This document shows, piece after piece, positions 35,317-40,687 of a stretch of DNA of 64,000 bases. Within the stretch, counting starts at the first letter, position 1. Every line of letters begins with the position of its first letter. The notes below the pieces were generated by a model that did no database searches, was not told the DNA's origin, and saw only the letters and a list, made by a program, of their open reading frames with translations. Source of the stretch: an uncultured Anaerolineae bacterium (GTDB lineage: Bacteria > Chloroflexota > Anaerolineae > CG2-30-64-16); assembly GCA_937124585.1 (NCBI GenBank), contig CAKZKT010000055.1, forward strand, positions 53,758-117,757, written 5' to 3'. The translations under genes and the position numbers were made by a program.

Positions 35317-35586
35317 ATGGCTCTTACGAAGGCACAGAAGGAAGCGATCATTCAGGAATACCATGTTCATCTCAATGACACGGGATCGCCTGAGGTCCAG
35401 GTAGCGATTTTGACGAAGCGCATCAATGCGCTGATCGAACACCTGAAGCAATACAAGAACGATCATCACTCGCGACGTGGTTTGCTCAAGCTGGTCGGGC
35501 AGCGCCGCCGTCACCTGGCATATCTGAGCCACAAGGACCCACAACGCTATCAGGAGTTGATCGCGCGGCTCGGTTTGCGGAAGTAA
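35317..35586 (+). CDS. rpsO: 30S ribosomal protein S15
   Basis: The 89-residue protein is a standard S15: [20 protein letters not shown], then [40 protein letters not shown] and [21 protein letters not shown]15 binds the central domain of 16S rRNA early in 30S assembly. It is the first gene of the widely conserved rpsO-pnp pair. AAAGGAG lies ahead of the ATG. Confidence 0.98.
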
Positions 35587-35785: not shown

Positions 35786-35829
35786 TTTGGTATTGGGGGA
35801 AGGTAAGGCAGTCCTGAGGTGCAGGAATT

Positions 35830-35868
35830 GGGGAGTGGCGCCAAACAAGACGTTTGGCGCCACTCCCC
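35830..35868 (+). promoter_or_regulatory. long stable hairpin in the pnp leader
   Basis: GGGGAGTGGCGCCAAAC and GTTTGGCGCCACTCCCC form a perfect 17-bp stem with a five-base loop. Outer CAGGA/TCCTG and AGGT/ACCT pairs lengthen it. In E. coli the pnp leader hairpin is cut by RNase III and then degraded by PNPase, giving autoregulation. The position here allows the same logic. Confidence 0.65.
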
Positions 35869-35963
35869 AGCTCCTGACCTCTGGATGCCATCGTCTCCGC
35901 GTTGCACTCTCGACGCGGAGGTCATCCGACCTGCTCAGGCAGGAGAGAGTACAAGGAGTTGTT

Positions 35964-38189
35964 ATGCAGAAGCACGTTTACACCACAGAAGTGGGCGGTC
36001 GCGCCATCACCATCGAGACCGGCACCCTGGCCAGGCTGGCCGGCGGCGCGGTCACCGTCCGTTCCGGCGATTCGGTCGTCCTGGCGACCGCTTGCGGCGC
36101 CAAGCCGCGCGAAGGCGTGGATTTCTTTCCCCTGAGCGTGGACTACGAAGAGCGCCTCTACGCTGCAGGCCGTATCCCAGGCAGTTTTCAGCGTCGCGAA
36201 GGCCGGCAATCGGATCAGGCCATCCTGATCTCTCGGCTCGTGGACCGGCCGCTGCGGCCCCTCTTCCCGAAGGGAATGACCAACGAGGTGCAGGTGATCG
36301 TGACCGCGCTGGCGCGCGATCCCGAAATCCACCTCGACATCTTGAGCATCATCGGCGCCAGCGCGGCGCTTACCATCTCGGACATCCCGTGGGATGGGCC
36401 GATCGGCGGGGTGCGCATCGGCTACGTGGACGGAACCCTGGTCGTTAACCCCACCGTGTCGCAAATGGCTGCCAGCCCTCTCGATCTGCGCATGGCGGGC
36501 ACAGCCGACGCGATCCTGATGGTAGAGGCCGGCGCAGACGAGGTCCCCGAAGATCTGCTGCTCGAAGCGCTGAAGCTGGGCCATGAAGCGATGCAGCCGC
36601 TCATCGCGCTGCAAGAGAAGATGCGCGCCGAGCTGGGCAAACCCAAGTTCGTGTACACGCCCGTCTTGTCCGATCCGGCGGTCGAAGCGGCCGCGCGAGC
36701 CTGGCTCGGCGATCGCGTGCGCGAGGCGATTGCCCAAAACCCAGGCAAAGAGGCGCAGACGGCCGCGCTGGAGGCGCTGAAGCAGGAGCTGCTGGCGGCC
36801 CTGGGCGAGACTTACGATGCGAAGGCGCTGGGCCAGGCGTTCGATAGCATCGAAAAAGCGGTCGTGCGCGAGCGCATCTTGACCGACAAAATCCGACCCG
36901 ACGGCCGTGCTTACGCCGAAATCCGGCCGATCAGCGTCGAGGTGGGCGTCCTGCCGCGCGTGCACGGCAGCGGGCTTTTCACGCGCGGGGAGACGCAGGT
37001 GCTCACCGTCTTGACATTGGGCACACCTGGCGATGCCCAAACGCTGGACACCCTCAACCCGGAGGAGTCCAAGCGTTACATGCATCACTACAACTTCCCG
37101 CCCTTCTCGACCGGCGAGGTGGCGCCCTCGCGCGGACCCCGACGCCGCGAGATCGGCCACGGCGCGCTGGCCGAGCGCGCGCTCGAGCCGATGATCCCGG
37201 CCCAGGAGACCTTCCCGTACACGCTGCGCCTGGTCTCCGAGGTGCTGTCGTCCAACGGCTCCACCTCGATGGCTTCGGTCTGCGGCAGCACCCTCGCGCT
37301 GATGGATGCCGGTGTGCCGATCAAGGCGCCGGTGGCGGGCATCGCCATGGGCCTGGTGACCGACGGCGAGGTGTCCAGCGCAGGGCTGCGCTATGCCATT
37401 CTCAGCGACATCCAGGGGCTGGAGGATCATCTCGGCGACATGGATTTCAAAGTGGCAGGCACCACCCGCGGCATCAACGCGCTGCAGATGGACATCAAGA
37501 TCCATGGCCTCACCTACCAGATCCTGGAAGAGGCGTTGGCGCAGGCGCGCGTCGGCCGACTGGCGATCCTGGAGAAGATGCTGGCCGTGTTGCCGGAGCC
37601 GCGCAAGCATCTATCGCTTTACGCGCCGCGCATCCTGACCACCCACATTGATCCGGAGAAGATCGGCAAAGTCATCGGCCCAGGTGGCAAGATGATCCGC
37701 AGCTTGCAGGATCAGTACAAAGTTAAGATTGACATCGAAGACGACGGTTCGGTCTACATCTCCGGCACGGAGGGGATCGGCGCTGAGCAAGCCCTGGCCG
37801 AGATCGAACGCATGACCGAGGAGATCAAAGTCGGTCGCATCTACACCGGCCGCGTGGTGCGCATCGAGCCCTACGGCTGTTTCGTCGAGCTCGCGCCCGG
37901 CCAGGATGGCATGGTACACATCTCGCAGCTCGCCGACTATCGCGTCGGCAAGGTGGAAGATGTCGTCCAGCTGGATGACGAGATCACCGTAATGGTTACC
38001 GATATTGATCCGACGGGCAAGATCCGTTTGAGCCGCCAGGCAGTGCTGGAGGGCTGGACGCCGGAGGAGGCGCGCGAGCGTGATCGCCAGGGCGGCGGCA
38101 AGCCGAGCGGCGCAGGCGGCCAGCGCGGCGGCGAGCGCAATGGCCGGAGCAGCGATCGCGGCCGCGGCGGATCAGATCGTCGGCGGTAA
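35964..38189 (+). CDS. pnp: polyribonucleotide nucleotidyltransferase (PNPase)
   Basis: PNPase degrades RNA 3' to 5' by phosphorolysis. The 741-residue protein has a first RNase PH domain ([36 protein letters not shown]), a helical linker and a catalytic second RNase PH domain ([40 protein letters not shown]). A KH domain ([20 protein letters not shown]) and an S1 domain ([20 protein letters not shown]) follow. The C-terminal tail is rich in Gly, Arg and Ser, common in RNA-binding tails. The start at 35964 is set by AAGGAG and the usual N-terminus. Confidence 0.97.
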
Positions 38190-38272: not shown

Positions 38273-38860
38273 ATGGATGAGTTGCAGTCACAGTCAACAG
38301 ATGCGCGGGGCACATCGCCCCAAACCAATTCGGTGCCGACCTTGCGGGCCCGTCTGCGCGGCGCGCTGCGCGACCTGTTGGGCACGATCCTGCCGGCGGT
38401 CCTCATCGCGCTGCTGATCCACGCGTTTCTGGCCCAGGCTACGCGCGTATACGGCCAGAGCATGGAGCCGAACCTCCATTCCGATGAGCGGCTGGTGGTG
38501 GAGAAGATCAGCTATCGTTTTCACGGTCCTCGACGTGGGGATATCGTGGTCCTGCACGATCCGGCCGGCGGCCCGGAGCTGCTGATCAAGCGCGTCATCG
38601 GCCTGCCCGGCGAGCGGGTCACGCTGGCCGACGGCCGCGTGTACATTGACGGCACCCCCCTGGACGAGCCGTACCTGTCGCAGCCCACGCCGGGAAACAG
38701 CCGCACGTGGCTGGTCCCGCCGTTAACGGTCTTCGTCATGGGAGACAATCGAAGCGCCAGCCGCGATTCGCGCGTTTTCGGTCCGGTGCCGCTGGATCAG
38801 ATCATCGGCCGGGTGCTCTTTCGCTACTGGCCTCCCGGCGAGATCGGGACCGTACATTGA
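38273..38860 (+). CDS. lepB: signal peptidase I
   Basis: Signal peptidase I removes signal peptides outside the membrane. The 195-residue protein has one N-terminal membrane anchor (ILPAVLIALLIHAFLAQATR), the catalytic serine in VYGQSMEPNLHSDE and the catalytic lysine in LLIKRVIGLPGERV. The family box FVMGDNRSASRDSRVFGP follows. The length matches the short Gram-positive type. Its stop is three bases from the next gene's TTG, so the two may be co-translated. Confidence 0.94.
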   Translation: MDELQSQSTDARGTSPQTNSVPTLRARLRGALRDLLGTILPAVLIALLIHAFLAQATRVYGQSMEPNLHSDERLVVEKISYRFHGPRRGDIVVLHDPAGGPELLIKRVIGLPGERVTLADGRVYIDGTPLDEPYLSQPTPGNSRTWLVPPLTVFVMGDNRSASRDSRVFGPVPLDQIIGRVLFRYWPPGEIGTVH

Positions 38861-38863
38861 CGC

Positions 38864-40687
38864 TTGGCTGCTGTGAGCACGCGCTGGAGTCCCTTCACCA
38901 AACACCTGTTCATCATCGTCAGTCTGGCCGTCGTCGTCTGGCTGATCTTCAGCGTTCGCATCCTCTGGACGCCCCTGCTGCTGGTTTTTCTGCTTTCATT
39001 CCTGGCCTCCTATCCGGTCAATCTCATCCTGAAGCATACCGGCTGGCCGCGCACGCTGGTTGTGATCCTCGTCTACCTGCTGTTGCTCCTGTTGCTGGCG
39101 CTTACCGTGGTGAACATCGTGCCGCGGCTGATTGCTCTGGGCACCGGGCTGGGCAACACGCTCCAGCGCGTCCTTTTTGAGCTGGCGCGGGCAACCCCAG
39201 AGCCGATTGAGTTTACGCCGACCCTCATCCTCGATGTGGACGAACTCTATGCGCCGATCCGAGAATCGCTGAACGGCATCCTGAATCTCGATCCGGATAC
39301 GCTGAAGACGCTGCAAGATTTCTTGTTCCCGTTCGCCAGCGGCGCGGCGGCCGTCGTCATCGGCGCAGTCAGCGGCATGCTCGGCACGTTGTTTGTGGTG
39401 GTGTCCAGCTTCTACCTGGTCAAAGATTGGCCGCATATCGGCCGTTTTCTGCTGACCCGGCTGCCACGCCGGTATCAGCCAGAGCTGGCCCGTCTCTGGC
39501 GTGAGGTGGCCGGCGTCTGGGATAGTTTCGTGCGCGGCCAGTTGCTGGCAGGCGGCATCATGGGGATCATGGTCGGCCTGATCCTGTCGGTTTTGGGGGT
39601 GCGCAATGCGATGGCGCTGGGGCTGCTGGCCGCGTTTGCCGAATTGTTGCCGGCGATCGGCCCGGTCATCTCTGCCGTCACGGGCACGCTGATCGCCCTC
39701 ACCTTTGCCTCAAACTGGCTGCCGATGAGCCACCTGTGGTTTGCCGTCACCGTGCTGGGCATCTACATCGTGCTGGGCCAGATCCAAAATCTGTACGTCG
39801 TCCCGCGCATCGTGGGCCGCCGCATTGACCTGCATCCGCTCGTCATCCTCATAGGCGTGCTGGCCGGCGCCGAGCTGCTGGGCATCCTGGGCATGTTGCT
39901 GGCCGCGCCGACCATCGCATCTCTGCGCGTGGTGTTCGGCTACGCGTTCAACAAATTGCTGGATCAAGAGCCGTTTCCCACCAGCAAGCGGCCGACCGAT
40001 CAACGGACGCTCTGGCGCGATCTGGTCACCGGTCGGCCGGTGCGGGCGGTGTTGTTCGACCTCGACGGCACGCTGATCGAGACCGATGATGTCATTGTCG
40101 AGCGCCTGGCGCACCGGCTGGGCTTTTTGGAACGCGTGCTGCCGATCATCGTGCGGCGCCGGGCGGCGCGTCGGCTGCTGATGTTCAGCGAAGCCTATTT
40201 CAACGGCTTGATCACGCTGCTGGACCGGCTTCGTCTGGACGGCGTTCTGCTCAGATTGGGCACGCTGTTACACCGCTGGCAGGGCATCCGGCCGCAGGAA
40301 CGTTTTGTGGCTGTGGAGGGCACACCGGCCGCGGTGATCGCCCTGGCCGAGCGCTACCGGATCGGGATCGTCACCAGCCGCAACCGGGCCGAGAGCCAGG
40401 CCTTCCTGACGCAGTACGGCCTGAACGATTGTGTGTCTGTGCTGATCTCGCGCGATGATTCCCCGCGGCTGAAGCCGCATCCGCTGCCGATTCGCCTGGC
40501 GGCCAAACAGCTGGCCGTGCCGGTCGAGCAATGCATCATGGTCGGCGACACGGGGGTAGATGTGCGCGCGGCGAAGGCGGCCGGTGCGCTGGCCGTGGGC
40601 GTGCTCTGCGGCTTCGGCGACCGGGACGACTTACAGGCAGCCGACCTGGTGCTCGATTCCACGGCGCAGTTGGCCGATTGGCTGTAG
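38864..40687 (+). CDS. AI-2E/PerM-family transporter fused to a HAD-superfamily phosphatase
   Basis: The first part (about residues 1-370) is an AI-2E/TqsA/PerM-family membrane protein with about eight helices. It includes SFYLVKDWPHIGRFLL, GQLLAGGIMGIMVGLILSVL and LPAIGPVISAVTGTLIALTF. The second part (about 395-607) is a complete HAD hydrolase: LFDLDGTLIETDD (nucleophile Asp399), GIVTSRNRAES (motif II), a Lys in RLKPHPLPIR, and MVGDTGVDVRAAKAAG (motif IV). It resembles phosphoglycolate-phosphatase-type HADs. The frame is open across the junction (residues 370-395), so this is one protein in the given sequence. The start is TTG at 38864 or GTG at 38873. Neither substrate is known. Confidence 0.85.
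   Translation: MAAVSTRWSPFTKHLFIIVSLAVVVWLIFSVRILWTPLLLVFLLSFLASYPVNLILKHTGWPRTLVVILVYLLLLLLLALTVVNIVPRLIALGTGLGNTLQRVLFELARATPEPIEFTPTLILDVDELYAPIRESLNGILNLDPDTLKTLQDFLFPFASGAAAVVIGAVSGMLGTLFVVVSSFYLVKDWPHIGRFLLTRLPRRYQPELARLWREVAGVWDSFVRGQLLAGGIMGIMVGLILSVLGVRNAMALGLLAAFAELLPAIGPVISAVTGTLIALTFASNWLPMSHLWFAVTVLGIYIVLGQIQNLYVVPRIVGRRIDLHPLVILIGVLAGAELLGILGMLLAAPTIASLRVVFGYAFNKLLDQEPFPTSKRPTDQRTLWRDLVTGRPVRAVLFDLDGTLIETDDVIVERLAHRLGFLERVLPIIVRRRAARRLLMFSEAYFNGLITLLDRLRLDGVLLRLGTLLHRWQGIRPQERFVAVEGTPAAVIALAERYRIGIVTSRNRAESQAFLTQYGLNDCVSVLISRDDSPRLKPHPLPIRLAAKQLAVPVEQCIMVGDTGVDVRAAKAAGALAVGVLCGFGDRDDLQAADLVLDSTAQLADWL

What the first reader, a model, noticed from the sequence alone, without database searches (positions are those of the whole stretch)
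38864..40687. AI-2E/PerM transporter fused to a complete HAD phosphatase
One open frame joins an eight-helix AI-2E-family membrane protein to a C-terminal HAD domain with all four motifs (LFDLDGTL, TSRN, Lys in LKPHP, VGDTGVD). AI-2E proteins are normally single-domain. The fusion suggests that what passes through the transporter is a phosphorylated compound, or is dephosphorylated on entry.
Basis: partly seen in the sequence, partly recalled or inferred. Interest (0 to 1): 0.7.

Follow-up and report, generated by a model that had tools for sequence, protein, structure and literature searches.

The report
Membrane transporter fused to phosphatase-like enzyme
In many Anaerolineae-type bacteria two neighbouring genes, one for a membrane transporter and one for a phosphate-removing enzyme, have merged into a single protein; in one large family the enzyme half has lost its catalytic residues yet is still conserved by selection, so its job there is probably not catalysis.

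Summary
One 607-codon frame (38864-40687, +; probable start GTG 38873) joins an AI-2E_transport domain to a HAD-IA domain with all four motifs. It is not an assembly artefact. The same two-domain frame, without stops, occurs in every family member whose contig is intact and in about 75 of 396 genomes sampled from the class. It lies at the end of a conserved rpsO-pnp-lepB-AI2E-HAD cluster.

The halves are separable operon partners: adjacent separate genes in several families, HAD alone behind lepB in others, transporter alone in others. In family f38 (30 proteins) the fused HAD is a pseudo-phosphatase: motif III Lys is gone in 30/30, the second motif IV Asp in 29/30, the nucleophile in 9/30. 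Its dN/dS is nevertheless 0.04-0.14, close to the transporter half. One member of the window's own family degenerated independently. No luxS was found in 10 family genomes, so AI-2 of own make is an unlikely cargo.

Best reading: a fused operon pair whose cytosolic HAD tail is an active phosphatase here and a maintained non-catalytic domain elsewhere. Coupling to transport and the cargo remain unproven. New variant of a known kind.

The parts
38864..40687 (+). AI-2E-HAD fusion gene (607 codons; probable start GTG 38873)
38909..39934 (+). AI-2E_transport domain (PF01594), residues 16-357
39935..40039 (+). linker, residues 358-392; in frame and of similar length in the fused relatives printed
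40040..40684 (+). HAD-IA phosphatase-like domain, residues 393-607
40052..40075 (+). HAD motif I LFDLDGTL (nucleophile D399, acid/base D401)
40373..40384 (+). HAD motif II TSRN (T504; R506 kept in active and f38 degenerate forms)
40469..40483 (+). HAD motif III LKPHP (K537)
40541..40561 (+). HAD motif IV VGDTGVD (D562, D566)
38273..38860 (+). lepB, type I signal peptidase (Peptidase_S26), directly upstream of the fusion (3-12 bp gap)
35787..38189 (+). pnp, polynucleotide phosphorylase (true start probably about 35964)
35317..35583 (+). rpsO, ribosomal protein S15 (translated match region)

Best explanation
The gene is a fusion of two operon neighbours at the end of a conserved rpsO-pnp-lepB-AI2E-HAD cluster. 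SHOWN by sequence: the transporter and HAD genes recur as adjacent co-oriented genes and as one frame; the halves can also occur singly at the same locus; the window's HAD has a complete HAD-IA active site; in family f38 and in G008 the tail has lost catalytic residues; f38 tails are still under purifying selection. INFERRED: the AI-2E half is an oligomeric exporter/channel like TqsA, and the HAD sits on its cytosolic face. In the window it hydrolyses a small cytosolic phosphoester whose product, or whose occupancy of the site, is linked to transport. The link is facultative: catalysis is dispensable in some lineages, where the tail remains as a ligand-binding or structural/regulatory domain. 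Cargo unknown; AI-2 made by the cell itself is unlikely.
For: Architecture and recurrence. Synteny in nearly all fused loci whose contig reaches far enough. Adjacent unfused pairs (f6, f13, f51, and f70 in another class, where the HAD ATG overlaps the AI-2E stop). Trees: one large clade holding 66 fused transporters, with f2, f14 and f29 fused elsewhere. Pseudo-HAD in f38; divergence ratio HAD/TM 1.6 against 1.0 in intact families, but within-genus dN/dS 0.042-0.141 for the pseudo-HAD versus 0.049-0.081 for TM. R506 and D401 are kept in all degenerate f38 tails, which suggests that binding is retained. Sampled second HADs in f38 are of other subfamilies, so no replacement was found. No luxS in 10 family genomes, with positive controls.
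Against: No substrate, activity, oligomer or transport is measured. HAD alone (f21, f16, G209) and transporter alone (f25, f26, f34) show that neither needs the other, which weakens any obligate coupling. The AlphaFold2 model is poor in the membrane half (mean pLDDT 57.5), so no interface can be read. Similarity to the solved AI-2 exporter TqsA is weak (E 0.006).
Confidence: 0.5

Rival explanations
1. Neutral operon fusion: two unrelated housekeeping functions joined by loss of a stop/start, with no functional coupling; the HAD is an ordinary metabolite phosphatase that happens to be membrane-tethered.
For: Separate adjacent genes with a near-zero gap; HAD or transporter alone at the same locus; trees needing several changes of state.
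Against: Catalytically incomplete tails remain fused and selected across f38. In G239 the HAD-IA has been swapped for a Cof-type HAD in the same frame, though this is a single draft genome.
Confidence: 0.33
2. One reading: the cargo is phosphorylated, or is dephosphorylated on entry, by the fused HAD.
For: Complete HAD active site next to a transporter domain in one chain.
Against: Catalysis lost in f38 and in G008 with fusion retained; halves separable; the tail is expected in the cytosol, so it could act before export more easily than at the outer face.
Confidence: 0.12
3. The cluster serves secretion or the cell envelope: the AI-2E protein acts with signal peptidase/Sec or cell-wall lipid-carrier physiology, and the HAD tunes it.
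For: Position directly behind lepB. The AI-2E protein YfgO, together with secD1, secF1 and ppiD, came up as suppressors of a C55-P translocase mutant in V. cholerae (PMC9876793).
Against: Gene order alone; the published link is genetic and to a distant family member.
Confidence: 0.15
4. Assembly or frameshift artefact.
For: Draft genomes; reads not available.
Against: Same in-frame junction in dozens of independent assemblies, including genomes in one contig such as G299 and G235.
Confidence: 0.01

Closest known systems
AI-2E family transporter (PF01594, UPF0118/PerM; TqsA/YdgG, PDB 7nb6)
   Same: Passes the Pfam cut-off by a wide margin; the core aligns to TqsA over residues 15-356.
   Different: Known members (TqsA, the L. 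acidophilus AI-2E protein, Halobacillus UPF0118) are described without a catalytic tail; similarity to TqsA is weak; no luxS in these genomes.
HAD superfamily subfamily IA phosphatases (phosphoglycolate phosphatase Gph, PpaX, AlnB 4ex6)
   Same: All four motifs, Pfam HAD_2, nearest solved folds 2hsz, 2ybd/3m9l, 4ex6.
   Different: Scores far below every equivalog cut-off (PpaX 83 of 218, PGP 80 of 180), so substrate unassigned; covalently tied to a transporter; catalytically degenerate in f38.
Bifunctional HAD fusion enzyme MtlD (7ocn/7ocu, Acinetobacter mannitol-1-phosphate dehydrogenase/phosphatase)
   Same: A HAD phosphatase fused to a partner protein; found by fold search.
   Different: Partner is a soluble dehydrogenase in one pathway, not a membrane transporter.

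Membership tests
AI-2E_transport (PF01594) | Pfam profile match over nearly the whole domain above gathering score | tested here: met
   profile positions 5-322 of 327, 155.3 bits vs 34.3
AI-2E_transport (PF01594) | About eight TM helices in the transporter part | tested here: inconclusive
   hydropathy shows a multi-pass pattern ending near residue 362; helix count not resolved, AF2 poor here
AI-2E_transport (PF01594) | AI-2 export / pentameric assembly as in TqsA | not testable with these tools
   no assay; absence of luxS argues against own AI-2
HAD superfamily, subfamily IA | Motifs I-IV (DxD, T/S, K, acidic pair) | tested here: met
   D399/D401, T504, K537, D562/D566 in the window; D399 42, D401 42, T504 41, K537 40, D562 42, D566 41 of 42 intact sequences
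HAD superfamily, subfamily IA | Fold similarity to solved HAD-IA phosphatases | tested here: met
   C-terminal HAD core pLDDT mostly 80-94, cap region lower; best PDB hits are HAD phosphatases, E 5e-9
Phosphoglycolate phosphatase / PpaX equivalogs | Curated NCBIfam equivalog cut-off | tested here: not met
   80-83 bits against cut-offs 180-218
Active phosphatase in all fused relatives | Catalytic motifs kept in every fused protein | tested here: not met
   30 f38 proteins and G008 lack two or more catalytic residues

The most novel reading that the evidence does not exclude
A phosphatase domain recruited by fusion to an AI-2E transporter has, in one bacterial family, evolved into a conserved pseudo-phosphatase that binds a phosphorylated metabolite without hydrolysing it and thereby gates or scaffolds the transporter.
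Probability: 0.25. Interest if true: 0.7.

Novelty: new variant of a known kind. Interest (0 to 1): 0.45.

Why it matters
AI-2E proteins are widespread but their cargoes are mostly unknown. A lineage with an enzymatic tail, natural tail-less relatives, and natural catalytically incomplete tails gives a ready comparative set for finding what the transporter carries and whether the tail regulates it.

Tried and rejected
Artefact or missed stop: rejected by recurrence. AI-2 as self-made cargo: no luxS in ten family genomes with positive controls. Replacement phosphatase in f38: the sampled second HADs are other subfamilies, also seen in a genome with an intact fusion. Motif III Lys shifted rather than lost: 14 of 30 f38 tails have no Lys at 533-541; most genus g128 and all g46 members have K at 535, so for them a shifted Lys is not excluded. 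Second-type fusion as a widespread pattern: the AI-2E-Cof form is in one genome only. Literature: three full-text searches found no description of an AI-2E-HAD fusion. Structure: transporter half unusable from the shallow alignment allowed. Presence of the fusion outside the phylum was not tested: the one attempt failed because the chosen centre was not accepted.

Full report
What is there. Window 38864-40687 (+) is one open frame of 607 codons, with an AI-2E_transport domain at residues 16-357 and a HAD-IA domain at residues 393-580. Homologues start at residue 4, so GTG 38873 is the likelier start. The frame begins 3-12 bp after the lepB stop, consistent with translational coupling.

It is not an artefact. 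A close relative in an independently deposited record (L003, Anaerolineae isolate Prado095) matches residues 4-607 at 67%. Six other genomes of the family carry the full-length stop-free fusion, a seventh matches up to its contig end, and in G001 and G004 only fragments were found, probably because of contig ends. Of 396 genomes sampled from the class, about 75 (my count from the table) have a single frame covering both domains. In the phylum sample no fusion appeared outside the class; there one genome (G405) has the two genes adjacent, the HAD ATG overlapping the AI-2E stop.

Genomic setting. tblastn with S15, PNPase, LepB, AI-2E and HAD queries shows the order rpsO-pnp-lepB-AI2E-HAD in the window and in nearly all fused loci whose contig reaches far enough (independent clustering; Pfam identities). 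The downstream minus-strand CysN/C and CysD-like genes did not cluster with genes at other fused loci in that comparison.

The halves are separable. Separate, adjacent, co-oriented genes occur in f6, f13, f51 and f70. In f21 (G064, G133, G114, G029), f16 (G250, G286) and G209 the HAD stands alone directly behind lepB; in f21 a fused sister (G091) and linker-like residues before motif I (e.g. G064, G133) suggest that the transporter part was deleted. In f25, f26 and f34 the transporter stands in the operon without this HAD. In G239 the fused tail is a Cof-type HAD (PF08282) joined at the LFDLDGTL sequence, seen in one draft genome only. In f10 and f59 the transporter carries an acetyltransferase (GNAT) tail instead.

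Trees. In the transporter tree 66 fused rows fall in one well-supported clade (with G002, whose contig is cut, and G239, the Cof variant), while f2, f14 and f29 fusions lie among unfused rows; starred branches force at least four changes of the fused label, part of which reflects those two specially labelled rows. In the HAD tree f2 groups with the f6 adjacent-gene HADs at 88/92. One old fusion plus a few later fusions or splits fits best; the exact number is not settled.

Loss of catalysis. In f38 (30 proteins, many genera) K537 is replaced in 30/30, D566 in 29/30 and the nucleophile D399 in 9/30, while D401 and R506 are kept in 30/30. For 14 of 30 there is no Lys at 533-541; in most g128 and all g46 members a Lys lies two positions upstream, so a shifted role cannot be excluded there. 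G008, in the window's own family, lost motifs III and IV independently. Across pairs the f38 HAD has diverged faster than the transporter (log-distance ratio 1.6 against 1.0 in intact families). Within genera dN/dS of the HAD is 0.091, 0.141 and 0.042 in g128, g92 and g46, against 0.081, 0.069 and 0.049 for the transporter (Nei-Gojobori; few pairs in g92 and g46, and synonymous distances near or above 1 in g128 and g92). The domain is therefore maintained, but not, on this evidence, as a standard phosphatase. Sampled second HADs in those genomes belong to other subfamilies.

Function. The HAD matches no curated equivalog; nearest solved relatives are phosphoglycolate phosphatase-like and other HAD-IA phosphatases. 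AI-2 of own make is unlikely as cargo: no luxS in ten family genomes, with five control genomes positive. The published AI-2E literature names AI-2 export, Na+(Li+)/H+ antiport and envelope links (PMC9134010, PMC5379678, PMC9876793), so the family name does not fix a substrate. The cytosolic position of the tail is an inference from an even number of TM helices with the N-terminus inside; hydropathy alone did not resolve every helix, and the model is poor there.

Verdict. A real, conserved fusion, already present in public genomes but not described in the papers searched. The strongest new point is not the fusion itself but its fate: a maintained, catalytically incomplete tail in one family. 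Whether the tail acts on the cargo, gates the pore or is merely tethered is open.

Noticed in passing
L120:5805-7844 (G018, f10); L070:544-2853 (G288, f59): AI-2E transporter fused to a C-terminal GNAT acetyltransferase region, a different tail on the same transporter family.
   Followed up: partly
L132:6127-8046 (G239, f15): AI-2E fused to a Cof-type HAD (PF08282) in place of HAD-IA, in the same operon position; single genome.
   Followed up: partly
L129:5300-7454 (G064) and L131:1-1900 (G133), f21: Transporter part absent, active-looking HAD directly behind lepB; the stretch before lepB holds tandemly repeated sequence (seen by eye in the translations).
   Followed up: partly
L094:6435-7588, L095:9245-10672, L096:6467-7620 (G009, G006, G007): Two tandem lepB-like signal peptidase genes upstream of the fusion; the window has one.
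   Followed up: no
L115:3319-6042 (G175, f6): A P-type cation ATPase gene sits between pnp and the unfused AI-2E/HAD pair.
   Followed up: no
L021:1501-3339 (G008, same family as the window): Independent decay of HAD motifs III and IV with the fusion retained.
   Followed up: yes
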